NCBI GenBank assembly: GCA_025354985.1
Contig: JANXLU010000042.1
Location: 62,001 to 126,000 of the forward strand
Reading direction: 5' to 3'
From: Chloroflexota bacterium
GTDB lineage: Bacteria > Chloroflexota > Anaerolineae > J036 > Brachytrichaceae
DNA length: 64,000 nt
Positions 20,070 to 41,984 of the stretch are shown here, in pieces; the first letter of the stretch is position 1, and every line of letters starts with the position of its first letter. A model generated the notes under the pieces. The model had not been told where the DNA came from, made no database searches, and saw nothing but the letters and a program-made list of their open reading frames with translations. The translations under genes and the position numbers were made by a program.

Positions 20070-20291
20070 ATGAATCGCAAGCGGACACCATTGCACACAT
20101 TCGTGGTTCGCTGCCTTGTAACGGAGCCGAACCAGGTGCTGGGCGGCCAGGTAAGCGAACCGGCATCCCCGGATGAGTGGCAGGCCCGCTTTACAACCGC
20201 CGATGAGTGCTTGGCCCTGATCCTGGCACGAACCACCAGTTTGACCAGCATCCAACTTTCAAAATCCAATGAAGACCATAACGAACCTTAG
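20070..20291 (+). CDS. Small protein preceding the giant secreted protein
   Basis: A 73-aa soluble protein of unknown function. It begins MNRKRTPLHTFVVRCLVTEP and contains VLGGQVSEPASP and FTTADECLALILARTTS. The pattern (a FVVR strand, a GGQV strand, a short loop and a DECLALI helix) resembles a class of small proteins I associate with Chloroflexota, in which a strand-strand-helix unit ends in a leucine-rich helix; this is recollection, not a search. The gene starts six bases after a TAATCT element, and its last 23 bases overlap the start of the giant gene in another frame, so translation of the two may be coupled. It could alternatively be a leader peptide. Confidence 0.55.
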   Translation: MNRKRTPLHTFVVRCLVTEPNQVLGGQVSEPASPDEWQARFTTADECLALILARTTSLTSIQLSKSNEDHNEP

Positions 20292-23200
20292 GACGTGGAT
20301 AATTTTGGCCACGTGCGCCAGCCTTATGGCCTCATCTCAATCTGCCGCCGCAACGTATGGAAGCGCGAGCAAGCCCGTGACGTCACCCATCATGGCAAGC
20401 CGCTTCGCTGCCGACAGCCTGCCAAATCCCACGAACAATCCGGCGGTTCTGGGCACGCCGATCAGCATCTCGCGGGTGCAATCGGCCGCCACAGCAGGCA
20501 CGGCCAGTGGCACGCTGGTGGTTACTTACACGATTGCAAACAACCTGACGCCGTTGGTCGCTCCGCAGTTTAGCCCATCCGCCACCATCACCGCGACCCT
20601 GGCGCAATTTAGCGCGTTTAATTACGCGGATGACCCCAATACCCTTCGTGGGCTCCTGCTTGGCGACGCGCTTACCGCGAGCGCGGGGCTTGTCAGTGGA
20701 TCACCCGTGCCCGATAAAAGTGGTCTTAATCTGGCGTATAGCCTGCCCGACCTGCCGCCACTCAGTCGGGTGAGCGTGGTGCTCACTCTGAGCGTACCGG
20801 CATCCTCAGCGAGCGCGCTGTCACTTGACAGCGGCCTGATCGCCTGGGGCACACTCCGCGGACGGCTGGCCAAAGCCAGCGCGCCCGCACTCAGCCTGGC
20901 TCCTGACGCGCTCGCGGGCTGGCTGGGTCGCACGGTGGATGCCGACACGCAGGACAGCGTGATGCTGGATCAGCTGGGTGCACTGGACGGAACCCCGGCG
21001 GGTATTTTCGGCTTTGTCAGCGGTCTGGGCTTTGAGGCCTACAAGGGTGCGCTGCGTGGCACCCGCGGCACGCTCTGGAGCGGGGCGGGTAATTCATTGG
21101 ACAAGAGCAGCCTGTTGATTGCGATGTTACGGGCCAGCGCCATACCGGCCCGGTATCGCCATGGCGCGCTGGATGGCGCGCATCAATCGCAATTGGTTGC
21201 CAGCATGTTTTCCGCGCCCGGCGGCGCGCTGGGCCTGGTGCCCGCGGGTGACACACTTAGCGATCCGGCTCACGATCCGGCCCTGCTCGCTGCGGTCGCC
21301 GATCACTGGTGGGTGCAGGCCAACCTTGGCGGCACCTGGACCGATCTGGATCCGTCGTTTGCAAACGCTGCAGCTGGGCAGTACTTTGCCAGCAGCATCG
21401 CCACCGATGGCACGGATCTAATTCCCGAGGTTCCGGATATGTTTCGGCACAAGATTACGCTCCGGGTAAAGACCGAACGGGCGGATGGCGGCAGCCTGTT
21501 TGGAACGGGTTTTGCCTACGAGTTCCCGCTCTCGACCACACTGGTCGCCGAGTCGCTGGTGGGCGTGCCGGTATCGCTGCAGCACTTGGTGAAGGTCAGT
21601 GGCGGGGGCGGGTCTATTTTTAGCTCCCAGGCCATTGACTACGTGCCCTTTCTAATACTGGGCGACCGCGCTGATCTTCGATCCATCGATGGCCAGACGT
21701 TTCAAGATCAGACCAGCACCTTTGGTGGCGGGCTGGCCAACACGGTGCACACCGCGGAATGGCTGGAAATCGATCTGCGGGATGCAGATGGCAGCGTGCG
21801 CACGGTCTCGCGCGAAATCGCCGACCGGCTGGGCTATGCCGCGCGGCAATCGGGCACGGCTGCGGTCGGCGCGAGCGCGGGCACGCCACTGGTGAGTGAG
21901 AACCAAATTTTCCAGATCCTGGCCGCGCCTTCGCGCGTGCCGGCATCGGCGCGGAACCTGCAGATTGCCGCGCTGATGGCGGCCAACCAGAGCGTAGTGC
22001 AGGAGCTTGCCCGCGTGGATGCGCTGCAGCCCGCTGACGTGGCCGGGCGCGACCTTGCGGCACGCGAGGCAACGAAAGCGTATCGTGCGTGGGCCGGCAA
22101 CGTGCTGAGCTTGATCGACCTGACCCATTACATCGATTCGGATCAGGCGGCGGAGCAGCTGGGCGCCAGCATGTTGGTAAAGCCATTTGTGACCAGCCCG
22201 CGGATTATCATCGCCACAAGCGATGTGGGTGACACGGGCAACATCACGATGACGCTTGACCTGCTGGTGGATCACATAAGCGCATACGCATACCCCGCGC
22301 AGAGCCAGGCGGTTGAAGGTGCGTTTCAAGCCATGCGCGGATACGTTGAGTCTTCGATAGAGGGCACGGCGCTCTCCGAGGTCACGTCCAAGACCGCGCG
22401 CACGACGTACGCGGTGTTTGAGGCCCTTAAGAGCGCAGCTAATCCGGGCATCTTTATCGCCTACCCGGATGACATGACCGGGCTGGCTGCGGCGAATATT
22501 TCCGACCTGGCCAAGGCACGCATCGCAGCCGCGGTGGCCGCGGGCAAGATTGTGATCGCGCCCAATCAAATGGTGACCCTCGGTGGCGTTAGCACGATTG
22601 GATGGTGGGAGAAGGATCCGGCCACGGGTGAGGTGATTGGGGTGATGCAGGATGGTTTGCATCAGGCCATCATCGAGTACACGGCACTTTCGCAGTTAAA
22701 CAACCCGTCGTTCATATTTATCGGGTTCTGGCACGGTTTTACTCAGGCCTGCTTTGCCATTGCGTCCGGGGTGCTTTCGAAAGTGGCTGAGGGCAAGCCG
22801 TTTACCGTGAAGGATGTGATTCGACCACTTCTGTATACGGCAATGATCGAGGCGGAACTGGCGCTCGCCTCGGTTGGTTCCAGCATCTTGAAGGGAGCAG
22901 CACGGGAGATTATTGACAAGCTGATCAGCAGCACCGAGGAATGCTTTAAGGGCGACTGCCCCACTGACGAGAAATTACTGACGTGGGCGTTCGACAAGCT
23001 CATAGCCGCGGTGAAGAAGGCGGTTGTGGCCGGCGAAGAGCCGCCTTTCGAGATCAACTTCGACAGCTATAAGGTGTCCACGCAGGTCGGCAAATTTGCC
23101 GCGTATCTGTTTTTTGCTCGGGCTTCGGATCCTGCTATTCCGCCAGAGCAGCTGATTGGTCTCAGGGTGCAAGTTGACCCCGCGCGCGCCATCGCCGTCA

Positions 23201-26200
23201 CGCAAGTGCCAGCCACTGCAGCAGGGGCGAACATCTCGGCATCGCTGCAAGTTGCGCACGCATACGCGGGCAGCCCGGGAAGCGTGGGGCTATATGCGGC
23301 GGTGCCGAGCGGGCTGGGCGTGGGCGGGGCATGGCCGGGCGCGCCGTTTGCCAACTTTGGCGCGAGTGGCTCGGTGGCGGTTTCGGGTGCGAATCTGATC
23401 CTTGGCCCGGGCAGCGGCACACTCACGGTCGGCGGTGCACCATTCACGGCGGCCGGTGGGGTGGCGATGGGAAACGCGACGGGCACGCTACAGGTCAGCG
23501 CGGCGGGTGTAATTACGGAGAAAGTCAACTTCCTTGGCAGCGCACAGGTATTTGCCCTGAGCGTGACACCGATGAGCTCCACGATCACGCCATTGCAAAG
23601 TGCTACATTTGGCGCGCAGCTCGCGGCCAATTTCAGTGGCGACTACACGATGACTGTCGAAGGCGCACCGGGCTGGCGGGTGGCGCTGGATGCCGGGCGG
23701 CACATCACGGCCACTCCGCCGCTTGGCGCGACACCCGGTGACTATACGATTGCCGTCACTGCTCAGTCGGTGGCGCTGCCGCGTCTGCAGCTGACCGTGG
23801 TGCACACGGTCACGCTGGTTTCAGTCGACGGCGCGCAACTGACGGTGCTGCCCGATCCGCTGACCACGGTGCCTTGGGGACCGGGAACGGTGAGCGGCCA
23901 ATTGCAATTGACGCAAGCGGCGTATCGTGTGGTTATCACCAACACGGGTAACCTGGATGCGCGGTACGACGTGACTGTGTGGAATCTGCCGGTCGGTTGG
24001 AGCATACTCAACAACAGTATTGGCGCAACCACAACCGTGGCATTGCGCGCAGGCGCAACCACCCAGCTGGGCTTATATGTCTCCCCGACCCTGGCGGCAT
24101 TGCCACCCGTGGGCAGCGCGTTTCCGTTTTCGCTGACGGCGGTCAAATCCGGCAATGCAGCCGTCCAGGCGAGCGCCATTGAAACGTTTGTGGTGCCCGG
24201 GCTGGCTTTTGCCGCGTTGACGGTTGCGCCCGACCCGGCCTATGGCAGTCTCGGGTTCTCCACCACGCTTGCCACCCAGCTGAGCAATGCGGGCAATGTG
24301 ACAGCGACGTTTGCCGAATCGATCACGTTGAGCGATGCCGACTGGTCAGCGGCTGCGCTGCCGCCAGTGTCGCTGGCGCCGGGACAGGCGATCACGCGAT
24401 CAATCGTTATCAGCACGGCGAGTGGCGCTGTTGGAACCAAACACCCGCTGCAAATCATGGCAGGTGCGGGCGGCCAGACCGCCACCACCTATGTAAGCGT
24501 GCACATGCTTGGTCCAACCGGCGCGTGCAGCGTGCGCTTCGCGGCTGGGTTGGAAGACGGGAGCGACCAGCTCCTTGGTGCAGCGGCCAGCAATATGGCA
24601 AACGCCATCAGCGCGCTCGAAGCCGCGCCGGGAGACCTGGCCCTGCGCACAGCCGCCGTCATGGCCATCCGGTCGTTGGTGGTCCGGGCCGCGCCGCTGC
24701 TGCCTGCAGGCGGCGTCGCCGGGCTTACCTCGATGGCCGATGGCCTCGCCAGCGACACCAACGCCGCGCAGGTGACCACGCGGCTGGGCGGTTTGTGCGC
24801 GGTCGAAACCGATCTGGCCATCGCGTTGGCGCAATCCGCCCGGCACCGATGGCAGGCGCAGTTTACGCCAGCCACTGCGGTGTCCTTGCCAGGGCGACCG
24901 GTGACCTACACGTTTGACATACTGAACCGCGGATCCGAGACCAGCACATATACCGTGACGTTGGGTTCAGCACTGCTGGCAGGGCCGGTGGCAACGCATC
25001 CCACACTGGCCGTGGGCGCGCACACTTCCACATCTGTTTCGCTGGTAACCACCACGCTTGGCTTGTTCCCGCTGTTTGCCGTCGTCGTGTCGGATGTTCC
25101 AATCACAGAAGGCATTGGTGCGCAAGAACACATCCCGGCCGCATTACTGGTCGTTGACCGACTGGCTCAGGTGGTCGACGTTTCCGCCACGCCCGGCTTT
25201 GTGGAGACCGGGAGCAACATCACCCAGCTCTCCGCCCGTATCGCCAACGTGGCCAACGTTGCAGTCAGCGGTCTGGCCACCACGCAGGTGTTTTCACCGG
25301 ATGGCTCGGCGCTCGTTACCACGACTGCGCCACTCAACCTGACGTCCGCGCCCGCTCCGCAGTCGGTGGACCTGGGACCGTTCTCAACCGCCGGCCTGGC
25401 GGTGGGTGTTTACACGATTTCGTTCGGGTTGGCCATTAGCACGCCGACCAATCTGGCTGGTAGCGCGCCCATCACCGGCTTTGGCACGCTCGCAGTCGGC
25501 CAGGGGCTGATTGTGCGTGAGACTGTCTCGCCAACCATGGTGCCGCCCGGCAATAGTGTGATTACGGATGTAATCAGCACCGAGCGGGTAAACATTGGTG
25601 CAGGGGCGGCCGGCGAAACAGGAACCCCGCTGGCCGTTTATTCGCTCACGATCAGCTCGGTGACCAACGCCAGCACCAGCGACCCAACCGTGGGCGTTTC
25701 GCTTACCCTCGACGCGGGCACCTATGACGCCGTGCTGGATGATGGCGCGTATCGTATCGGCCCGGTCGGCACTATAAACGGTCTGTGGCGCAGCGGATTT
25801 AATGCCAGCGTCTATGTGACTACCACGTTGGCGCGCGCCTACCCGATAGCCCAAGGCACGGACTTTGTGAATGGCGGGTCGGCCACCGTGGAAGAGGCCC
25901 GCGCGCTTAACCAAAGCGCCAGCGCGCGCATCTACCTGCCCGCGCCTGCCACGGTGTATTTCTGGATTCCTGACGGATACGGCGGAGACAACGCCGGCGC
26001 GCTGGCGGTAAGCGTGCGCAAGATGGTCACCTCCAGCACCGCGCTAAACCGCCAGGTGGAGGGTGCGCTGGCGGCGGCGCTACCGGCGCAGGAGGCGGAT
26101 ACACTGGCCTTCAACAACTGGTCGCAGAGCAACAGCTGCATGGCCTGCCACATCCAAACGCAGAGCATGATCGGGCATGATGCCGCGCATAGCAAGGTGC

Positions 26201-29200
26201 CGCACAGCCTGGGTGATGCGCGGGTGATCGATGCCGTTCGCAGTTTGATCCTGGGCTCGGTGGACAACAACGGTGTGATGGGCAATGGCAGCGCAGGACG
26301 CGAGGTGGCCGCCACTGGATTTGCACTGTGGGCGCTGGCGCGCGACAGCGACCGAGCTGCGGCGGCCGCGCCGGCGGAGTTGCGCCCGCCCGGCATCCGC
26401 CGCTATGAAGAAAGCCACCCCGCGCTGCGCTTTAACAATCTGCCTTTTAACGGGGGCATCACCTGGGCCCGCTATTCAGACGCCAGCGACAGCGGCGGCT
26501 ACCTGGCCACCAGCCGCACGGCGGGTGACTCGGTCAGCCTGACGTTTGACGGTCGGGCTGCCTGGGTTGGCTTTATTGGGCAGACAAACACCGGGCTGGC
26601 CCGGGTCTTTGTCGATGGCGTGGTGGTCGAGACTTTGGACACGTACCGCACCACCCGGACCGACTTTCAGCGTTACTATGGCGGGCTGGTCACCGGCACG
26701 CACACCATCAGTGTGAGTGTGCTTGGCACGCATACGGTTAATGCCAGCGAGAACTACGTGGTGCTGGATTATTTCGATGTGTGGGATGGCAGCGACCTGG
26801 CACCCGGGCGCTTTGAGGAGGATGATCCACTGCGCGTGGCGCACACCGAAGATTGGGGGCAATCCAATAACCCCCCAGCCATCGGCGGAAAATATTTTGG
26901 CGACGGCAGCAACATCTGGTTCTTCTTCGGCGGCGACTCGGCGACAATTCAAACGCTGGCCGGTGGCACGGGTCAGATGGAGGTGATCGTAGATGGGCAA
27001 TCGCAGTCGCTGGTGAACGTGTCAAGCTACACCTATTTCACGCGAACTTTTTCGTTTGCCGGGTTTGGCCCGGGCGGTCACGTGATGCAGGTGCGCGCAT
27101 TCAGGGGCAATGCCGTGGTGGATGCCTTTATCGCGCCGGGCACTGCACCTTTCATCACTTCGCCGCCAACCGCCGGAATCACACGGCGTGAAGAGGTCGA
27201 TAGCAGTTGGACCTACAACGGCGCGGCCTTTGTCAGCAGGTCCGTGACATGGGCGCTTATTGGTAACAACCACGCCAGCGGCGGTGCGGCGGCCAGCACC
27301 ACGACCATGAGCGACACCGCCAGCACCGTGTTTAGCGGCACGTGGGCCAACCTCGGTCTCGTTACGGGCGCGGATTGTGGCCTTGTGCAGGTCGCGTTGG
27401 ACGGGGTGGATCAGGGCACGTTGGATACCTACAGCCGGTATGAGGGCACACTGACGCGAAACTGGCCTGCCCTATCCGCGGGCGCGCATACGCTCACCCT
27501 TACGGCGCTGGGCGCGAACAATGGCACCTCGTTTGGGGTGCGTGTGACCCCGGATTATCTGGATGTGTGGGATGGCAGTACGCTTCCTGCGGGCGAATTT
27601 GGCGAGGGCGACCCGCTGCAATATGCCTGGCAGAACCCACGGGTGATTTACAGCAACAATTGGGCGACGAGCACGCTGCCCGCCGCGGCCACCAATGGCA
27701 CGAATGCATATAACGGCACGAGTGCATGGTTCTCGTTCTCCGGTGACTCGGTCACGTTTCGTTCGGTCGGCGACACCAATACCGGCCTGGCCGAGGTGCT
27801 GGTGGACGGGCGTCACCTGGCCACGGTGGATAACTTCGTGGCTTCGGCTGCGGTCACTCGCACGTGGTCGTTTAACGGGCTGGATGCCGGGCCGCACATG
27901 TTGCAGGTGCAACAGCTGCATGGCGGGCTGAGCGTGGATGGATTTGCCGCGCCTGGGGTGGCGCCGTTTTATGCGCAGCCGACCGGGACGGGGATCGTGC
28001 GGCATGAGGAAAGCGACTCGCTTTGGCGCTATAGCGGCACAGCCTACCCGCGTGTTTCGATGAACTGGAGCAACCTCTTTCACAGTCAGCTTAGCGGGGG
28101 CTGGGATTGGGAATCCGCCACAACCGGCGCCACCGCCACGCTCACATTTAGCGGCACTTGGCTGATGCTGGGCTTGAATAGCTGCAATTCTTGCGGCAAC
28201 GCCGCAATTGCGATCGATGGCGTGCTACAAGGTGTTATTGATACGTATACATCCACTGAGACCGCGCTCAGCCGGATGTATTCCGGTCTGAGCCCCGTGA
28301 CCCACACCCTGACCATCACCGTGCTGGGCACCAGCAACGCAAGCTCCAATGGAAGTATGGTCATGGTTGACTACGCCGACACATGGGATGGGGCCGGCAT
28401 GCCAACAGGCGTATATCAGGAGGCTGACGCGCGTATTAACCATACCACCAACTGGATCGCGGCGCCGGATGTGGTGGCCAGCGGGGGTTCCTTCTACTCC
28501 AACGGAAGCAACGCATGGTTCCCGTTTACCGGCGGCTCGGCCACGATACAGGCCTATGGCAATACGTGGACCGGGGTCGAGGATGTGTTGCTGGATGGCG
28601 TCTTCCAAGGCACGTTAACCACCACGGCTGCCGGCGCTGTCACCCAAACGTATAGCCTGACCGGTCTGCCAACCGGGCCGCACGTGATGCAGATACATGC
28701 GCGCGCGGGCAGCGCCACTTTGGATGCGTTTGTCACACCGGCGGGCGGCGCGGGTCTTGCACCCATCGTGCACGGCGCCGGGCTTGCGCTTGCGCGTGCC
28801 GAGCCGCCCGTGGCGGACGCTCTGCTTGCTCCAAGCGACCAAACGGCCGCGACGGTCGGTCAGAAATCCAATATCAGCACAGCGCTGATCGCGGCTGCGC
28901 ACACCACCGGTCCGACGTATCCAGCGGGCTACGCCGGGCCGGGGCCAGCGCTTAGCGCGTCGGCAACGGTGGTCACTCAGGGCGTGGGGCTTACAGCCAC
29001 TATGGTCCGCATGGCCGACTATCTGGTCAGCCAGCAGCTGCCCAGCGGGATGTGGGTTGCAAACACCGGCGGATTCACCGAGAACCTATGGTGGTTGACG
29101 GACTTCAACGGTGTGGGCTCGCACCCGGCCAGCACGGCCTACAACATCATGGGGCTGCGCCGCGTGTATGAGATGACCGGCGACACGGTCTACCGAGACG

Positions 29201-31641
29201 TGATCACGCGGGCCGCCAGCGCGCTGGTCACCCTGCCCTATACCCAAAATCATTCGGTGGTGCTGCATGAGTTGATTGGGTTGGCCTTTGCCCAGCCGTT
29301 GATCCTGAGCCCGACGCTGACAGCTCAGACCGCCGCGCGCGCGGCCGAGCTAGCGGCGTATTTGCGCGCAAACCAAAACCCGGATGGCGGGTGGGGTCGG
29401 GGCGAGGGCGGCGTGATCACGCCCTCCGACCCGTTGCCCACCGCGGGGGTGTTGTATGCACTGTCACTGTTGCAACCCAACAGCGTGGATCCGGCGTTGA
29501 CCGCTGCGGCCAGATACCTGATCGCGCAACAGCGCGTGGATGGTCAATGGTCTTCAATATTTTCCACCAACAACGCCAGGCCGATCCTAACCACCTCGTG
29601 GGTGGATATTGCGCTACCGTATATTTATGATGTGCTCAGCAGCTACAGCGTGAGCGTCACACATTGGGTGCCGATCAGCGGAGTGACCGTAATCGATGCT
29701 TCGGTAAACCCGTCCGCCAGCGTTTCCAGCAGCAGCGGTGAGGCCACCTATGGCTGGGCATATAACCAGGCGCCCAACGTGCCACTACAAACCCTGTCCC
29801 ATGCCGCCAACCTTACCGGGATGCGCCCGGGTGAAACGCGCCAGGTGACCAACGGCACGGTGGTCAGCTACCTGATCGAGAGCGGGAGCAACGTGGTACG
29901 GCTGGCCCCGCGCTTCGTCACAGCCGGGCATTTGGTCGCGGTAGCACCAGGTGAACGTACCAGTGCACCGGGTGAGGTTGTGACGTTTACGGTCACCCTC
30001 GCAAACCCTTCGAGCGCGGGCGATGTCTACACGCTCTCGCTATCCGGACTGTCGGATCAGGTGGTGTCGGGCTTGCCGCTGACCATGGTCATCCCGGCCG
30101 CGGGCTCGGCCGCGCTGGTGGTGTCGGTCACGCTGCCCGCCACTGCCCGCATCGGTGATGCGCCGTTTATCGTGCAAGCCATCAACCGCGGTGGTGGTGC
30201 GGATCAGGCCGGGGCGGTGATTCATGTGATCGATCCATTCGACATTGCCGTGCTGCCCGCACGGCGGATCGCCAGCGCGGGCGGTCAGGTGACATATACC
30301 ATGGTCATCACCAACAACGAGCTGGTGACGCGATCGTATGCGCTGTCCAGCACCGGTCTGGCCGGGGATGTGCTCGATATGCCACAGGTCATCACGGTCA
30401 ACCCCGCCGAGCGCGCGAGTGTGCTCTTTACGGTCACAGCGCTGAACACCACGCCTATCCAGCTTTTCCGCATACTAACAGCCGAGCCGGTAAGCGGGCT
30501 CACCCGCGGCGCAGACGCCGCCCTGGACGTAATCGGTCGGCAAGGTGTGACGGCCGCGATATCCCCAGCGTCCGTCACAACCGCGCCGCAGATGGCGATC
30601 CGGCTCTCTGCAGTGATCACCAACACCGGTGATCTTTCAGATACCTACGATCTGAGTCTGCAGCTCCCCGCGGGTTGGAGCAGCGCGATCCAGGCCAATG
30701 GTGTGGGCATAACTGCTCTTCAACTTCCAGCCATGGCGCTCAACACAATGCGCTTGTACCTGGTAATCACCCCGGCGCTGGCCAGCGCCGGCGGCACCGG
30801 TGCGGTGTCTCTAACCGCACAGTCTCGCACGAACGCGGGCGTGAGCGCAGTTGTCACGGCAAGCGTGATCGTCCGCGCGCCCGGCTTGGCGCTGAGGATC
30901 GCGCCACAAAGCGCGCACGCCGCGCCGACTGTGACGAGCACCTGGCAAGTGTTGGTGACCAACACCGGGTCGGTTGTGGGAACGTTTGTGCTCACGCCCA
31001 GCGGCTTTGGCGCGGCCAACGCCACACTATCACCCGCATCACCCGCGATTGTGACGCTTGGCCCGGGGCAAGCCACCCAGGTGGTTATGACAATTGGGGC
31101 GTCACCCTTTGCCCTACCCGGCCCGCACTCGTTTGGGGTGATTGGCGCGCTGCAAAGCAGCCCGGACATATTGGCACAAGATAGCGCTACACTGATCATC
31201 GATGGTGCGCGGGCCATTCAAACCAGCATCGGCCCGGCACTGGTAAACCTGACCTCCACACTGGGTGTGGGCACCTATATGCTGTTGATCACCAATACGG
31301 GCGACCTGGCTGATGACTATCTTGTCACGCCCGGACTCGCGCGGAGTGACGGCGCCCTCACGGTGATCGCGGAGACCAACCATGTGTTTATCCCAGCGCA
31401 CTTCAGCGGCGCAGTGTTGTTTACCGCACAATCCATTCTGCCGGGAGATTTTGCCGTGGTCGCACAGGTCTCATCCATGCGCGGGGTTGCCAGCAGTTCG
31501 AGCCAGGCGGTGCTGCGCATTGCGGGAGCGCTGCCAACCGCCACACCGACGGCTACGGCAACGCCATCACCAACGCAGACACCGACGGCTACGCCTGGTC
31601 ATCGGCAATTTGTGGTGGACCTGCCGCTGGTGCAGCGCTAA
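20269..31641 (+). CDS. Giant secreted multidomain protein with transglutaminase-like, CxxCH alpha-toroid, triple-repeat and Ig-like modules
   Basis: A 3790-aa exported protein. Residues 1-28 are a signal peptide. A transglutaminase-like domain spans about 215-365 (GNSLDKSSLLIAMLRASAIP, then HWWVQANL and WTDLDPSF), with Ser276 where the catalytic Cys is expected. About 365-1000 is a mixed region I cannot name. About nine Ig-like/NEW3 modules carry ITNTGNLDARYDV-type motifs, four between about 1170 and 1720 and five between about 3210 and 3720. An alpha/alpha-toroid (squalene-cyclase fold) begins near 1930 with NSCMACH (Cys1957, Cys1960, His1961), is interrupted by three repeats of about 260 residues (2042-2830), and resumes at about 2912-3125 with NPDGGWG and VDGQWS. 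The C-terminus is a TPTATPT linker plus VVDLPLVQR. Function unknown; surface adhesion or polymer binding is one inference. Confidence 0.88.
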   Translation: MKTITNLRTWIILATCASLMASSQSAAATYGSASKPVTSPIMASRFAADSLPNPTNNPAVLGTPISISRVQSAATAGTASGTLVVTYTIANNLTPLVAPQFSPSATITATLAQFSAFNYADDPNTLRGLLLGDALTASAGLVSGSPVPDKSGLNLAYSLPDLPPLSRVSVVLTLSVPASSASALSLDSGLIAWGTLRGRLAKASAPALSLAPDALAGWLGRTVDADTQDSVMLDQLGALDGTPAGIFGFVSGLGFEAYKGALRGTRGTLWSGAGNSLDKSSLLIAMLRASAIPARYRHGALDGAHQSQLVASMFSAPGGALGLVPAGDTLSDPAHDPALLAAVADHWWVQANLGGTWTDLDPSFANAAAGQYFASSIATDGTDLIPEVPDMFRHKITLRVKTERADGGSLFGTGFAYEFPLSTTLVAESLVGVPVSLQHLVKVSGGGGSIFSSQAIDYVPFLILGDRADLRSIDGQTFQDQTSTFGGGLANTVHTAEWLEIDLRDADGSVRTVSREIADRLGYAARQSGTAAVGASAGTPLVSENQIFQILAAPSRVPASARNLQIAALMAANQSVVQELARVDALQPADVAGRDLAAREATKAYRAWAGNVLSLIDLTHYIDSDQAAEQLGASMLVKPFVTSPRIIIATSDVGDTGNITMTLDLLVDHISAYAYPAQSQAVEGAFQAMRGYVESSIEGTALSEVTSKTARTTYAVFEALKSAANPGIFIAYPDDMTGLAAANISDLAKARIAAAVAAGKIVIAPNQMVTLGGVSTIGWWEKDPATGEVIGVMQDGLHQAIIEYTALSQLNNPSFIFIGFWHGFTQACFAIASGVLSKVAEGKPFTVKDVIRPLLYTAMIEAELALASVGSSILKGAAREIIDKLISSTEECFKGDCPTDEKLLTWAFDKLIAAVKKAVVAGEEPPFEINFDSYKVSTQVGKFAAYLFFARASDPAIPPEQLIGLRVQVDPARAIAVTQVPATAAGANISASLQVAHAYAGSPGSVGLYAAVPSGLGVGGAWPGAPFANFGASGSVAVSGANLILGPGSGTLTVGGAPFTAAGGVAMGNATGTLQVSAAGVITEKVNFLGSAQVFALSVTPMSSTITPLQSATFGAQLAANFSGDYTMTVEGAPGWRVALDAGRHITATPPLGATPGDYTIAVTAQSVALPRLQLTVVHTVTLVSVDGAQLTVLPDPLTTVPWGPGTVSGQLQLTQAAYRVVITNTGNLDARYDVTVWNLPVGWSILNNSIGATTTVALRAGATTQLGLYVSPTLAALPPVGSAFPFSLTAVKSGNAAVQASAIETFVVPGLAFAALTVAPDPAYGSLGFSTTLATQLSNAGNVTATFAESITLSDADWSAAALPPVSLAPGQAITRSIVISTASGAVGTKHPLQIMAGAGGQTATTYVSVHMLGPTGACSVRFAAGLEDGSDQLLGAAASNMANAISALEAAPGDLALRTAAVMAIRSLVVRAAPLLPAGGVAGLTSMADGLASDTNAAQVTTRLGGLCAVETDLAIALAQSARHRWQAQFTPATAVSLPGRPVTYTFDILNRGSETSTYTVTLGSALLAGPVATHPTLAVGAHTSTSVSLVTTTLGLFPLFAVVVSDVPITEGIGAQEHIPAALLVVDRLAQVVDVSATPGFVETGSNITQLSARIANVANVAVSGLATTQVFSPDGSALVTTTAPLNLTSAPAPQSVDLGPFSTAGLAVGVYTISFGLAISTPTNLAGSAPITGFGTLAVGQGLIVRETVSPTMVPPGNSVITDVISTERVNIGAGAAGETGTPLAVYSLTISSVTNASTSDPTVGVSLTLDAGTYDAVLDDGAYRIGPVGTINGLWRSGFNASVYVTTTLARAYPIAQGTDFVNGGSATVEEARALNQSASARIYLPAPATVYFWIPDGYGGDNAGALAVSVRKMVTSSTALNRQVEGALAAALPAQEADTLAFNNWSQSNSCMACHIQTQSMIGHDAAHSKVPHSLGDARVIDAVRSLILGSVDNNGVMGNGSAGREVAATGFALWALARDSDRAAAAAPAELRPPGIRRYEESHPALRFNNLPFNGGITWARYSDASDSGGYLATSRTAGDSVSLTFDGRAAWVGFIGQTNTGLARVFVDGVVVETLDTYRTTRTDFQRYYGGLVTGTHTISVSVLGTHTVNASENYVVLDYFDVWDGSDLAPGRFEEDDPLRVAHTEDWGQSNNPPAIGGKYFGDGSNIWFFFGGDSATIQTLAGGTGQMEVIVDGQSQSLVNVSSYTYFTRTFSFAGFGPGGHVMQVRAFRGNAVVDAFIAPGTAPFITSPPTAGITRREEVDSSWTYNGAAFVSRSVTWALIGNNHASGGAAASTTTMSDTASTVFSGTWANLGLVTGADCGLVQVALDGVDQGTLDTYSRYEGTLTRNWPALSAGAHTLTLTALGANNGTSFGVRVTPDYLDVWDGSTLPAGEFGEGDPLQYAWQNPRVIYSNNWATSTLPAAATNGTNAYNGTSAWFSFSGDSVTFRSVGDTNTGLAEVLVDGRHLATVDNFVASAAVTRTWSFNGLDAGPHMLQVQQLHGGLSVDGFAAPGVAPFYAQPTGTGIVRHEESDSLWRYSGTAYPRVSMNWSNLFHSQLSGGWDWESATTGATATLTFSGTWLMLGLNSCNSCGNAAIAIDGVLQGVIDTYTSTETALSRMYSGLSPVTHTLTITVLGTSNASSNGSMVMVDYADTWDGAGMPTGVYQEADARINHTTNWIAAPDVVASGGSFYSNGSNAWFPFTGGSATIQAYGNTWTGVEDVLLDGVFQGTLTTTAAGAVTQTYSLTGLPTGPHVMQIHARAGSATLDAFVTPAGGAGLAPIVHGAGLALARAEPPVADALLAPSDQTAATVGQKSNISTALIAAAHTTGPTYPAGYAGPGPALSASATVVTQGVGLTATMVRMADYLVSQQLPSGMWVANTGGFTENLWWLTDFNGVGSHPASTAYNIMGLRRVYEMTGDTVYRDVITRAASALVTLPYTQNHSVVLHELIGLAFAQPLILSPTLTAQTAARAAELAAYLRANQNPDGGWGRGEGGVITPSDPLPTAGVLYALSLLQPNSVDPALTAAARYLIAQQRVDGQWSSIFSTNNARPILTTSWVDIALPYIYDVLSSYSVSVTHWVPISGVTVIDASVNPSASVSSSSGEATYGWAYNQAPNVPLQTLSHAANLTGMRPGETRQVTNGTVVSYLIESGSNVVRLAPRFVTAGHLVAVAPGERTSAPGEVVTFTVTLANPSSAGDVYTLSLSGLSDQVVSGLPLTMVIPAAGSAALVVSVTLPATARIGDAPFIVQAINRGGGADQAGAVIHVIDPFDIAVLPARRIASAGGQVTYTMVITNNELVTRSYALSSTGLAGDVLDMPQVITVNPAERASVLFTVTALNTTPIQLFRILTAEPVSGLTRGADAALDVIGRQGVTAAISPASVTTAPQMAIRLSAVITNTGDLSDTYDLSLQLPAGWSSAIQANGVGITALQLPAMALNTMRLYLVITPALASAGGTGAVSLTAQSRTNAGVSAVVTASVIVRAPGLALRIAPQSAHAAPTVTSTWQVLVTNTGSVVGTFVLTPSGFGAANATLSPASPAIVTLGPGQATQVVMTIGASPFALPGPHSFGVIGALQSSPDILAQDSATLIIDGARAIQTSIGPALVNLTSTLGVGTYMLLITNTGDLADDYLVTPGLARSDGALTVIAETNHVFIPAHFSGAVLFTAQSILPGDFAVVAQVSSMRGVASSSSQAVLRIAGALPTATPTATATPSPTQTPTATPGHRQFVVDLPLVQR
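26392..27174 (+). repeat. Large in-frame repeat 1 of 3 in the giant gene
   Basis: Encodes residues 2042-2302 (261 aa), starting GIRRYEES. Each unit has two beta-sandwich-like halves. The first ends with a LDYFDVWDGS strip; the second has DGSNIWFFFGGDSATIQ and ends VDAFIAPGTAPF. Internal phrases such as VDGVVVETLDTY and TGTHTISVSVLG recur in all three units. Confidence 0.8.
27175..27990 (+). repeat. Large in-frame repeat 2 of 3 in the giant gene
   Basis: Encodes residues 2303-2574 (272 aa), starting GITRREEV. Landmarks match repeat 1: LDGVDQGTLDTY, AGAHTLTLTALG, DYLDVWDGST, then GTSAWFSFSGDSVTF and VDGFAAPGVAPF. A 17-base stretch around the DVWDG codons (gatgtgtgggatggcag) is identical to repeat 1, which indicates duplication at the DNA level. 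Confidence 0.8.
27991..28762 (+). repeat. Large in-frame repeat 3 of 3 in the giant gene
   Basis: Encodes about residues 2575-2831, starting GIVRHEES. Landmarks match: IDGVLQGVIDTY, VTHTLTITVLG, DYADTWDGAG, then GSNAWFPFTGGSATIQ and LDAFVTPAGG. The extra segment NSCNSCGN has two cysteines not found in the other copies. The 3' limit is approximate because the toroid sequence resumes gradually. Confidence 0.75.
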
Positions 31642-37787: not shown

Positions 37788-40700
37788 TTAGTTCCCGCAC
37801 GGTGCGATATTGCGCCAGTTCGACGCCGTGTCGGCAACAGTTTGCACCCCGTTGACGCCGTAGACCAAGGTAAGCTGGCGGTTGGCAACCTCACCGCAGG
37901 TGGCGTCTTTCTCCACGAAGTCCCAGGAACCCAGTGCATATTTGTATTCGATTTGGGTGCCTTCCGTGCCGGTCAGCGTGATCGTCCACGTATTGGGTGC
38001 GGTCTGGCTGAGCACGACGCCGCCCGGGTTCCACTGCGGCAGACCACCATCCAAACGATCCAGGAAGCCGGCAATGTAGACCGAGCGTCCGGCTGTGGGG
38101 GCCGCGGTCACATTGAAGGTCAACGTGACTGTGCGAAGCTCAGCGGTCGCCCTCAGTTCGTTGGAATTGCCCGACCGGTTAAAGCTAAGGTCCAGTGAAC
38201 GGACAACGTAGTAATAGGTCGCGCCCTGAGTAATTGCGAGGTCAAGGTAGGTTGGCACAGTGGTCTGTCCAACTTTTACGTAGGGCCCGCCCGATGAGTC
38301 GCCACGGAGTACTTCGTATCCGTAGAGTGAGGCATCAGTGACGGCGTCCCATGCCAGCTGAATGCCCGCGGGTGACGCGGCGGTTACGACCAAGTTTGTC
38401 GGGGAAGCAGGCGCAGTTGTGTCACCGCTTGAGGCCACGGAAAGTTTGCCTGGGTTTGAGGGCAAGGCCCCGGCCGCCACAGGGCCGGAAAAGTCGGCAA
38501 CCAGCCAGTCGCGGCCATTGGTTGTACTGTAGCGATACACGTAGTCGTAGGAGCCAACGGCTTCAGGCAGCAGACTGGCTTTGTACTCATCGTTGTTGCC
38601 GGCATCTGCGTTGAACGTGGCGTCCCCCCAGACCCAACCAGCGGCGCCAGCCGGATTGGTTCCGACCGGGCCAAAACCAATCCGGGCAAGCAAACCCGGC
38701 GTTGGACCGGGAACATTGGTGAGACCGTCAATCCAAATTTGGCCATAGACATTCGGCGTGCGGTTTACGGCGCTGATGGTGTGATTGATGGAGGGCGGCC
38801 ACTGTGTATTTGCCCAGCCAATGGTCGGGTGCGGCAGCCCGGCCGTTTCGTTTGAAGCCGTGCCTTCGTTGCCGGCGCCATCGCGGGCCTTTATGACATA
38901 GTAGACCGTGTGACCGCCCGTGAGGCCGCTGTCAACAAACGCGGTTGTCGTGCTGCTACCGACCTTGACATATCCACCACCGCTGACCACGCTGCGATAG
39001 ATGACATAGCCACTCGCGCCAGACACTGCGTTCCAGCTCAGGCTTATGCTGGTGCGCCCTTCGGCGGTGACCGCGAGCCCTGTTGGCGCGGATGGACCGG
39101 TGAGATCGGCCCCGCTGACCGTCAGAATGGTCGCCGAGCGCGGCGCAATGGTGACGGTGAATGAGCCCGAGGCCACGGCCGATGCGGTTGCCGCGCCGAC
39201 GGTGTAACCTTTCTTGGGCAAAACACCATCCGGTAAAAAGCCGGTGACCTGAATGGCGGTGGTCGTGGTGGTCGTGCTGCGGTTGATGACGACCACTGCG
39301 GCTGCGTCGCCGCTCTTGCGGCCATACGCAACGAGGCCGGTCGCATCGTCGGCAGTGAGCATGCGCAGGTCACCATTGACCAAAGCTGGCGTGCTTGCGC
39401 GCAGGGCGGCGAGTGTGCTGTAATGTGACTTCAGGCTGTTATCTTGAACGCCGCCAGTCTGCGGCCAAGGGAAGGTGCGGCGGTCATCCGGGTCATCGCC
39501 GCCAGTCATGCCCACTTCGTCCCCGTAATACACCGTGGGGGCGCCTGGCAGGGTGAACTGAATCAGGGACGCAAGCTGGACGGAGCGCTTACCCGTTGCA
39601 AGATTGGCGGCGTTAAATTCTTTCTCAGCGCGATTTGCTGCTCCGGGGGTCAGCGTCCAAAGAATGCGCTCGGTATCGTGGCTATCCAGCAGGTTCATCA
39701 GGCTGTAGTAAGCCGCGTCAGGATAGTCTTCGCGGATCGAACTAATACGGCTCGCGAACTCGCTCGGCGCAAGAATACGGCCGCTGTCGCCAAAACCCTT
39801 GGAGTCAAACGACCCCGGGGTGAGCAACCCGATTACCGCGTCGCGCAGGCGATAGTTCATGGTGCTGTCGGCCAGGTTGCCACGCAAGAAACGCAACAGG
39901 GTGCTGTCTTTTTGCCAGAGCTCACTGATGATGAGCGCGTTTGGATCCTGGGTTTTCACCACGTTTCGGAAAGACTCCCAATAGCCTGAGGGAAAGGATG
40001 CATCGCCCATCACATCCAGCCGCCAGCCGGCAGCGCCGCGTTTTAGCCACAATTTTGAAATACTATTCGGGTCATTGACAAAGTAGGATTGAACCGCGGG
40101 GTTGGCCTTGTTTAGCACGGGGATGCTGTCAAACCCGAACCAGCCGTTATAGTAAGTATCCGCGCCGCCAGCCGTTGTGGGTGCGCAGGGTGACGGTTCC
40201 AAACCGGCCGGGGCACGAAAGCCAAACCAGTTGCGATAGACCGACGAGCTGGCCTCGCACGCGCCCACTGTGGCGAAGTGCCGGTAGCGGTCAAAGAAGG
40301 CGCTATCGCTGGACATGTGATTAAACACGCCATCCAGGATGATGCGAATCCCGCGTCCGCGGGCCTCCTTAACCAGTTCGCGAAAGTCCTCGTTGTTACC
40401 CAGGGCCGGGTCGATGTTTGTGTAGTCGGCGGTGTCGTAGCGATGGTTGGATTTGGCGGCGAAGATCGGGTTGAAATAGATGGTGTTTACGCCAATCGAT
40501 TGCAGGTATTCAAGGCTCTCTTTGACGCCTTCAAGGTCACCGCCAAAGTAATCCCGGCCACGCGGAGATTCCTTGGTTGGGCTGGAGGCGGGCGGATTTG
40601 CGTCATACCGCCATGGACAGTTGGTGGCGCCATCGGTGTAATTTCGGCAATAGCCTTCGGGCAGGCTGTTCCAAGGGAGCGCGACGACGGGATCGTCATA

Positions 40701-41984
40701 GCGAACATCACCAGTCTTGGGGTCGTTACGCTTGTTGCCATTGCGAAAGCGATCCGGAAAGATTTGGTAGATCGTGGCGTTTTTTGCCCAGGACGGTGCG
40801 GTAAAGGCCGGGTCGTAAAACATCAGTGCAAAGCTTTGATCGACCGGATTGGCGGTCACCGCACCCAACCCACCGTCCAGGGCGGCGGTGTTGTCGGCAT
40901 AGTGTGCCGTCGCGCTGCCATCATTTATTACGAAGCGGTACCACAGATTGTTCGGTGTGGCCGACGAAAGCGTAGCCTCCCAATAATCGCAGCGTTTGGT
41001 TTCCAACCCGCTCTGGAAGCACGGTTCATCGGCGGCGGCAATATGCATGGGAGCGAAGCGCTGACCGTTGGCGTTTACGTCATAGATGCGAACGTTTACG
41101 CCGGTAACATCGTTGTGATAGGTGCGCAGGCGAACGCGCACATCGGTGCCCACCGGCACGGCACCGGACGGTGTGCGGTACAGCGAATCACGCGAATCAT
41201 GGCGCAGGCCATCCCACTCCACGTTGTTATCATGAGACGGGAGTGCGGATTCGACCTTTACTGAAGGCGTGTTGGTGGCGGTGTTAAAACTAATTGTGAC
41301 AATGCCATTGGCCGGGACAGTGAATGGAACATTGTTCCCGCCACCACCCTGTCCGTAATTTGGATTTGACCAGCTTTCATTGGTGGCAATTTTGAACTCA
41401 TAGCTGCCGGCCGGGATGGCGCTGGTTACATAGGTGAAGATGCCATCGCCATCGACATCGGTCATCAGAGTAGCGAGGCAATCCGGGGCCCAATCTCCGG
41501 CGCAACCGATCTCGCTGTTAAAACTGCCCGGAATGGTGTATATCGTGTTGCGGACATTGTCGGCGATGTAATGGGTTTTATGATCGTAATAGAAGCGCAC
41601 GGATTGTGGCGCAGCCAGGGTAAGGGCGATGTTTGGTCCGTTTAGCTTGAAATCCGCGCCATAGCTCTCGGCCCAGCTGCCGAGCGCGATTTTGTAATTC
41701 CAGGCACCGGCAGGAATGACAGACGAGGTGAACACATACACATCGTTGCCGGCCGCGGTCAGCGCCGATGCGGGGCATCCCGGATCCCAAGTGCCGCAGG
41801 CTCCGGACGTGGCGGCGGTTTGCAAATCTCCGGCGAGGTTCACCGAGGCGGGCGAGGTTGCGGTGACAGAACGGGGCCCCGCGGCCCTTATAGACTGCGG
41901 GTGAAGAGGCGACACAAGCGCAAGCAGTGCGGCCACGGTCAATGCTTGGCGCCGAATCATCGATAACTTGTTTGAATATTGCAC
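37788..41984 (-). CDS. Secreted multimodular GH13 alpha-amylase/pullulanase
   Basis: A 1398-aa secreted enzyme for starch or pullulan. The GTG start at 41984 is chosen because AGGAGG lies four bases upstream. After a signal peptide (LTVAALLALVSPLHPQ) come two X25-like starch-binding modules (about 45-115 and 145-235), a CBM34-like N domain (about 255-390) and a GH13 barrel from about 398 (IYQIFPDRFRNG). The catalytic residues are all present: Asp657 in GWRLDVMGDA, Glu688 in IISELWQ and Asp770 in LLDSHDTERIL. After the barrel are fibronectin III (961-1050), an unnamed 110-residue module (1051-1161), a second fibronectin III (1188-1276) and a C-terminal CBM20-like domain (1285-1398). The GH13 part most resembles neopullulanase/amylopullulanase-type enzymes. 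No sugar transporter is adjacent. Confidence 0.92.
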   Translation of the reverse strand: MQYSNKLSMIRRQALTVAALLALVSPLHPQSIRAAGPRSVTATSPASVNLAGDLQTAATSGACGTWDPGCPASALTAAGNDVYVFTSSVIPAGAWNYKIALGSWAESYGADFKLNGPNIALTLAAPQSVRFYYDHKTHYIADNVRNTIYTIPGSFNSEIGCAGDWAPDCLATLMTDVDGDGIFTYVTSAIPAGSYEFKIATNESWSNPNYGQGGGGNNVPFTVPANGIVTISFNTATNTPSVKVESALPSHDNNVEWDGLRHDSRDSLYRTPSGAVPVGTDVRVRLRTYHNDVTGVNVRIYDVNANGQRFAPMHIAAADEPCFQSGLETKRCDYWEATLSSATPNNLWYRFVINDGSATAHYADNTAALDGGLGAVTANPVDQSFALMFYDPAFTAPSWAKNATIYQIFPDRFRNGNKRNDPKTGDVRYDDPVVALPWNSLPEGYCRNYTDGATNCPWRYDANPPASSPTKESPRGRDYFGGDLEGVKESLEYLQSIGVNTIYFNPIFAAKSNHRYDTADYTNIDPALGNNEDFRELVKEARGRGIRIILDGVFNHMSSDSAFFDRYRHFATVGACEASSSVYRNWFGFRAPAGLEPSPCAPTTAGGADTYYNGWFGFDSIPVLNKANPAVQSYFVNDPNSISKLWLKRGAAGWRLDVMGDASFPSGYWESFRNVVKTQDPNALIISELWQKDSTLLRFLRGNLADSTMNYRLRDAVIGLLTPGSFDSKGFGDSGRILAPSEFASRISSIREDYPDAAYYSLMNLLDSHDTERILWTLTPGAANRAEKEFNAANLATGKRSVQLASLIQFTLPGAPTVYYGDEVGMTGGDDPDDRRTFPWPQTGGVQDNSLKSHYSTLAALRASTPALVNGDLRMLTADDATGLVAYGRKSGDAAAVVVINRSTTTTTTAIQVTGFLPDGVLPKKGYTVGAATASAVASGSFTVTIAPRSATILTVSGADLTGPSAPTGLAVTAEGRTSISLSWNAVSGASGYVIYRSVVSGGGYVKVGSSTTTAFVDSGLTGGHTVYYVIKARDGAGNEGTASNETAGLPHPTIGWANTQWPPSINHTISAVNRTPNVYGQIWIDGLTNVPGPTPGLLARIGFGPVGTNPAGAAGWVWGDATFNADAGNNDEYKASLLPEAVGSYDYVYRYSTTNGRDWLVADFSGPVAAGALPSNPGKLSVASSGDTTAPASPTNLVVTAASPAGIQLAWDAVTDASLYGYEVLRGDSSGGPYVKVGQTTVPTYLDLAITQGATYYYVVRSLDLSFNRSGNSNELRATAELRTVTLTFNVTAAPTAGRSVYIAGFLDRLDGGLPQWNPGGVVLSQTAPNTWTITLTGTEGTQIEYKYALGSWDFVEKDATCGEVANRQLTLVYGVNGVQTVADTASNWRNIAPCGN

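What the first reader, a model, noticed from the sequence alone, without database searches (positions are those of the whole stretch)
31530..31641. TPTATPT linker plus terminal LPLVQR tail, a possible sorting signal
The giant protein ends with a Thr/Pro/Ala spacer and then VVDLPLVQR directly before the stop. I recall a terminal (Y/D)LPL(V/I)xR or K motif after such linkers on many secreted Chloroflexota proteins. A shared short hydrophobic and basic tail after a flexible linker is what a C-terminal sorting or anchoring signal looks like, yet I know of no described machinery for it.
Basis: partly seen in the sequence, partly recalled or inferred. Interest (0 to 1): 0.6.

Follow-up and report, generated by a model that had tools for sequence, protein, structure and literature searches.

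The report
YLP-like tail on Chloroflexota surface proteins
The giant secreted protein ends in a short peptide that recurs at the very end of many unrelated exported proteins in one bacterial phylum, where it seems to act as an address label; what reads the label is unknown, but a relative of a known protein-attaching enzyme keeps company with it.

Summary
ORF 20269-31641 ends LPTATPTATATPSPTQTPTATPGHRQF-VVDLPLVQR-stop. In 1.26 Mb (30%) of this genome, 9 of 1,004 ORFs end in such a tail (0.25 expected; 4 hits in total at 15 displaced positions); all nine begin with a signal peptide, three of them judged by eye. A strict YLPLVxR-stop DNA pattern over 84,980 species gave 84 stretches; 71 of the 80 listed are Chloroflexota. 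The tail follows unrelated folds and takes the place where relatives carry LPxTG-membrane anchors. NCBIfam already catalogues it as 'YLP-box putative sorting motif', but the window's own tail scores in neither model, so it is a divergent variant. No reader is named there and no paper turned up. Sortase is not discriminating and is absent from a relative with nine tails; exosortase and rhombosortase do not fit. New lead: a catalytically intact C25 peptidase closest to PorU, the T9SS sortase, is in 20 of 20 tail-rich and 7 of 48 tail-poor genomes, often beside an LPxTG-anchored stub. It usually carries the tail itself, and three tail-bearing genomes lack it, so its role is a hypothesis.

The parts
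20269..31641 (+). ORF of the giant exported protein, 3,790 aa
20269..20352 (+). Sec-type signal peptide, about 28 aa
   Evidence: by eye from the translation
21067..21354 (+). transglutaminase-like domain (PF01841, E 1.2e-7)
23920..24198 (+). Ig-like stretch (best stretch of PF11614, E 2.4e-7)
27706..27915 (+). carbohydrate-esterase-2 N-terminal-like stretch (best stretch of PF17996, E 1.6e-18)
30235..30441 (+). Ig-like stretch (best stretch of PF11614, E 2.8e-10)
31531..31611 (+). Thr/Pro/Ala spacer LPTATPTATATPSPTQTPTATPGHRQF
31612..31638 (+). YLP-box-like C-terminal tail VVDLPLVQR
   Evidence: kin
31639..31641 (+). stop codon TAA directly after the tail

Best explanation
The tail is a divergent YLP-box: a short C-terminal address tag, consensus [R/K/H]-[VIAL]-[YF]-L-P-[LI]-[VI]-x-[RK]-(0-3 residues), on proteins exported by the Sec route. 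Shown here: it is C-terminal, tied to export and to the phylum, fold-independent, and stands where other genomes carry LPxTG-membrane or exosortase-type tails. Inferred: after export the tag is read outside the membrane by a dedicated partner that keeps the protein on the cell. Most likely reader, also inferred (about 0.3): a PorU-like C25 cysteine peptidase that cuts near the tag and joins the new C-terminus to an acceptor, possibly the LPxTG-anchored stub encoded next to it. In T9SS, PorU is thought to do this with a far larger C-terminal domain.
For: Phylum census: 32 of 301 genomes, concentrated in some families; 288 hits against 65 with the reversed pattern in 80 genomes. 71 of 80 listed stretches from all species are Chloroflexota. 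No internal copy in 85,260 aa, and [VIL] at position -8 in 77 of 92 ORFs although that position was not searched for. Script-called signal peptide in 52 of 67 tailed ORFs against 85 of 358 neighbours. A trypsin fold ends at residue 300-304 of 323, before the tail. Choice-of-anchor Q: 35 of 57 readable C-termini end YLP-like, 4 in a membrane anchor, by genome. C25: 20 of 20 tail-rich against 7 of 48 tail-poor genomes (p 1e-11), 7 of 7 against 3 of 35 families (p 4e-6), tighter than the cargo family choice-of-anchor Q at 18 of 20 against 18 of 48. PorU is its best solved relative, E 1.4e-40, above gingipain R 2.2e-29; invariant His and Cys in 17 of 17 rows. LPxTG-type stub beside C25 in 10 of 20 loci, one of them truncated.
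Against: No localisation or processing datum exists here. The window tail scores in neither YLP-box model up to E 10. For C25: G262, G037 and G150 carry tails without any C25, the only C25 of tail-rich G104 has lost both catalytic residues, and 25 of 30 C25 loci end in the tail themselves, so C25 may be mere cargo. The own C25 has no stub beside it. Genomes of one family are not independent, so the genome-level p overstates the link.
Confidence: 0.6

Rival explanations
1. Docking tag: the tail stays on and binds non-covalently, as an extended strand, to a groove of a surface receptor; C25 peptidases are only one more class of cargo.
For: Free-ending hydrophobic strand without a membrane helix; extra residues after the Arg are tolerated (KPN, RGG, RP); C25 proteins carry the tail; tails occur in genomes without C25.
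Against: No candidate receptor; C25 follows the tail more closely than another cargo family does.
Confidence: 0.25
2. Sortase substrate without a membrane helix: an LP-recognising sortase reads LPLVx.
For: LP core shared with LPxTG; sortases are common in the phylum and five of five f33 panel genomes have one next to a C25.
Against: No difference between tail-rich and tail-poor genomes (20 of 20 against 41 of 48); a 97% complete relative with nine tails shows no sortase; in the same loci sortase has its own LPxTG-membrane substrates.
Confidence: 0.04
3. Stability signal: the tail guards against, or invites, extracytoplasmic proteolysis from the C-terminus.
For: Extreme C-terminal position and terminal basic residue.
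Against: Does not explain the exchange with anchors on choice-of-anchor Q proteins.
Confidence: 0.06
4. Chance or a structural last strand of the preceding domain.
For: The own genome shows no excess at the DNA level.
Against: 9 of 1,004 ends against 0.25 expected; present after a TPT spacer and after unrelated folds.
Confidence: 0.03

Closest known systems
NCBIfam NF050076 sort_motif_YLP and NF053834 ultrashort_CTERM (YLP-box putative sorting motif)
   Same: Same position, core and lack of a membrane helix; 54 and 51 of 67 related tails match at E up to 1.
   Different: The window tail has Asp in the Tyr place and matches neither model; the model names give no machinery.
T9SS C-terminal domain and PorU (C25)
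   Same: C-terminal signal of exported proteins in genomes that hold a PorU-like C25, itself tailed as PorU is (that PorU bears a CTD is recalled).
   Different: About 9 residues, no CTD fold; no SprA match, though that search has no positive control.
LPxTG / sortase
   Same: LP core, C-terminal, on surface-type proteins with spacers.
   Different: No TG, no membrane helix, no basic tail after a helix; sortase not linked.
PEP-CTERM / exosortase
   Same: Fills the same slot after choice-of-anchor Q.
   Different: No membrane helix; exosortase matched in 3 of 40 genomes, 2 above cut-off.
GlyGly-CTERM / rhombosortase, MYXO-CTERM / myxosortase
   Same: Many-to-one C-terminal tags on exported proteins.
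   Different: Tripartite with a membrane helix (abstract openings); no rhombosortase above cut-off; myxosortase not tested.

Membership tests
NCBIfam YLP-box (NF050076, NF053834) | scores above the model cut-off | tested here: not met
   window tail: no match up to E 10; the own-genome tail of L174 scores 12.4, above the NF053834 cut-off of 10
NCBIfam YLP-box (NF050076, NF053834) | short helix-free tail ending in LPhhx[RK] at the stop of an exported protein | tested here: met
LPxTG / sortase substrate | LPxTG, then membrane helix, then basic tail | tested here: not met
   sequence
PEP-CTERM or other exosortase substrate | membrane helix in the tail and an exosortase in the genome | tested here: not met
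   no helix; none in G000, 3 of 40 genomes matched
GlyGly-CTERM | GG motif, helix and a rhombosortase above cut-off | tested here: not met
   no GG or helix in the tail; 0 of 26 genomes above cut-off
T9SS CTD cargo | SprA translocon in the genome | tested here: inconclusive
   0 of 26, but the search rang in no control
T9SS CTD cargo | folded C-terminal domain of about 80 residues (recalled) | tested here: not met
   nine residues after a TPT spacer
MYXO-CTERM | invariant Cys, helix, basic tail | tested here: not met
   no Cys and no helix in the tail; definition from the abstract opening
PorU-like C25 as reader | cleaves or joins the tail | not testable with these tools
   only co-occurrence and neighbourhood

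The most novel reading that the evidence does not exclude
Chloroflexota run a PorU-style transpeptidation without T9SS: a catalytically intact C25 peptidase removes the YLP tail of exported proteins on the cell surface and joins them to an acceptor, possibly the LPxTG-anchored DUF11-like stub encoded beside it, which a sortase has fixed to the wall. Genomes without C25 would use another clan CD peptidase or hold relic tails.
Probability: 0.2. Interest if true: 0.85.

Novelty: new variant of a known kind. Interest (0 to 1): 0.6.

Why it matters
If the tag is real, many large unrelated exported proteins per genome in Chloroploca, Roseiflexus, Herpetosiphon, Chloroflexus and their uncultured kin share one fate on the cell, which would explain how filamentous bacteria of this phylum hold their surface proteins. 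The C25 link gives a concrete enzyme to test and would extend a sortase-like chemistry known from Bacteroidota.

Tried and rejected
Sortase as reader: common, but not discriminating and not found in G262, which has nine tails. Exosortase: 3 of 40. Rhombosortase: only matches below cut-off, which also ring in all 14 control genomes and look like generic rhomboids. T9SS translocon: no match, without a positive control. A gene recurring next to tailed genes: none but other exported proteins and regulators. G180 as a tailed genome without sortase: dropped, because none of its hits proved to be a tail on an ORF of 60 aa or more. My first NCBIfam scan (E up to 0.01) missed the YLP-box models; only the scan of tails at E up to 1 found them. 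Structure prediction was not run: the C25 loci came from tools that its rule does not list.

Post hoc choices: the relaxed YLP pattern for choice-of-anchor Q ends was written after I had read them. In one search the script called 6 of 170 exported and 3 of 834 other ORFs tailed; I judged the three to have signal peptides by eye, and the Fisher value (9 of 173 against 0 of 831) uses that judgement. The tail-rich and tail-poor limits (4 or more, 1 or fewer strict hits) were also set after one search was seen. Chloroflexus genomes count as tail-poor although their tails are of the relaxed kind.
Full report
What is there. The ORF at 20269-31641 encodes 3,790 aa with a Sec-like N-terminus, a transglutaminase-like domain and Ig-like and carbohydrate-esterase-like stretches. 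It ends in a Thr/Pro/Ala spacer (31531-31611) and VVDLPLVQR (31612-31638) before TAA. The window lies in a 4.19 Mb genome of 98 contigs, placed in Chloroflexota by the kinship of its relatives (G222 has the contig lengths of Candidatus Chloroploca asiatica).

Chance. Over 1.26 Mb of this genome, 9 of 1,004 ORFs end in [LVIMF]P[LIFVM][VILMAF]x[RKQ]; composition predicts 0.25, and the same pattern 1-15 residues further in gives 4 hits over all 15 positions. The nine tails are VVDLPLVQR, RIFLPLVTQ, AIFLPLVTQ, RAFVPLVAR, SYFIPVLVR, PVLLPLLMR, SVFLPLVTQ, KYFFPLIKK and RITLPLIKK. The script placed 6 among 170 exported ORFs and 3 among 834 others; by eye those three, the window protein among them, also begin with signal peptides. 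Looser ends such as AFLPFIC and VFLPMVGH are seen in the same list. A broad DNA pattern shows no excess in this genome (94 against 134 reversed), so the signal is in ORF ends, not in raw DNA.

Spread. A GC-codon pattern for [YF]LPL[VIM]x[RKQHNS] matched 32 of 301 Chloroflexota genomes, up to 11 times in one. With a fully degenerate pattern 80 genomes gave 288 hits against 65 reversed, with 25-27 in each of three genomes of one genus (g152, which includes Chloroploca) and none in many others. Over 84,980 species the strict pattern gave 84 stretches; of the 80 listed, 71 bear Chloroflexota names. The other nine: two Marinobacter ORFs that look like cytochrome P450 and not exported (by eye), short ORFs in Rhodococcus and Streptomyces, an Elioraea contig whose tail region equals that of a Roseiflexus protein (likely mis-binned), and single contigs labelled Scytonema, Deltaproteobacteria, Gracilibacteria and 'bacterium'.

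Anatomy. Among 92 distinct tailed ORFs the core does not recur inside the proteins (0 in 85,260 aa), and position -8 is V, I or L in 77 and -9 Arg in 29, though neither was searched for. The script called a signal peptide in 52 of 67 full-length tailed ORFs and in 85 of 358 neighbours; several misses look like wrong starts. The tail follows trypsin (the solved fold ends at residue 300-304 of 323), peptidase M23, subtilase with MBG, beta-propellers, laminin G, SdrD_B and C25 domains.

Anchor exchange. In 4 of 10 first proteins NCBIfam's choice-of-anchor Q domain stood just before the tail. I read the C-termini of 70 such proteins: 57 end within the locus, of which 35 end YLP-like, 4 in a membrane anchor (one LPNTG-helix-RRERR in G126, one in the exosortase-bearing G011, and G055 and G088) and 18 otherwise. 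In this sample YLP-like ends were seen in no genome of the Anaerolineaceae-like f2 nor in G126, G174, G193, G288 or G291.

Known or not. NCBIfam release 20 holds two tiny models, NF050076 (11 positions) and NF053834 (10 positions), both 'YLP-box putative sorting motif': 54 and 51 of 67 tails match at E up to 1. The 67 were chosen from 83 non-redundant tails plus the window. The window tail matches neither up to E 10, while a tail from another protein of the same genome scores above the NF053834 cut-off. Full-text searches listed no paper on this motif; of the papers I saw only listings, except the abstract and outline of PMC4560394 and two passages of PMC3482391.

Who reads it. Sortase is in 20 of 20 tail-rich and 41 of 48 tail-poor genomes and was not found in G262, a 97% complete member of the window's family in which 9 of 11 pattern hits are tails on long ORFs such as RAFLPIVAR and RVYLPIVQR (in that genome too the DNA pattern alone is not in excess, 11 against 13 reversed). 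Exosortase and rhombosortase do not fit. Peptidase C25, met by chance because the own genome's C25 (L036) ends LYLPVVKR, is in 33 of 80 genomes: 20 of 20 tail-rich, 6 of 12 intermediate and 7 of 48 tail-poor, of which three are Chloroflexus with relaxed tails (the genus is inferred from G118's length of 5,258,541 bases, recalled as that of C. aurantiacus). By family it is 7 of 7 against 3 of 35. A cargo family, choice-of-anchor Q, follows the tail less closely (18 of 20 against 18 of 48). A profile of 17 Chloroflexota C25 domains matches PorU over its whole length at E 1.4e-40, gingipain R at 2.2e-29 and Lys-gingipain at 8.8e-18, with invariant catalytic His and Cys (that these two are the catalytic residues is recalled). 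PG0026 of P. gingivalis (PorU: name recalled) is the enzyme proposed to cleave T9SS tails and attach the proteins in a sortase-like way (abstract of PMC4560394).

Neighbourhood. Of 20 C25 loci read, nine have next to C25 a small exported protein with P/T-rich spacer, DUF11-like domain (by resemblance, not scanned), LPxTG-like box, membrane helix and Arg-rich end, and a tenth has a truncated one (LPETGRR, in the window's own family); giant YLP-tailed proteins stand next to several. In five of five f33 genomes of the panel a sortase domain lies within about 1 kb of a C25 domain. Against a C25 reader: 25 of 30 C25 loci end in the tail themselves, by my reading (2 do not, 3 could not be read); G262, G037 and G150 have tails and no C25 even with the specific profile; G104's only C25 has lost both catalytic residues; the own C25 stands alone.

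Verdict. A C-terminal sorting-type tag is well supported by comparison and untested by experiment. The window carries a divergent form of a motif already catalogued as putative. The PorU-like C25 is a new, testable but uncertain lead to its reader.

Noticed in passing
L412-L431 (C25 loci, G handles): Conserved pair: PorU-like C25 peptidase with YLP tail next to an LPxTG-anchored stub, often with a giant YLP-tailed protein and, in some genomes, a sortase.
   Followed up: partly
G005:C1:2764960, G216:C5:216506, G176:C1:2623866, G028:C21:70436: Sortase domains lie inside open frames of 2,900-3,800 aa, as if giant surface proteins carried their own sortase.
   Followed up: no
L221 and L224: Choice-of-anchor Q proteins of two genomes of one genus hold long arrays of a pentapeptide, YLPAS or YLPGT, inside the protein.
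   Followed up: no
window 37788-41984 (-): A 1,398 aa exported-looking protein in the window ends IAPCGN without a YLP-like tail, so the tail is not on every large exported protein.
   Followed up: no
L411 and L426 (G104): The only C25 of a tail-rich genome has Gln and Ser in place of the catalytic His and Cys.
   Followed up: partly
L114 (Elioraea record): Contig labelled Elioraea carries a protein end identical to that of a Roseiflexus protein (L133); likely a mis-binned contig.
   Followed up: no
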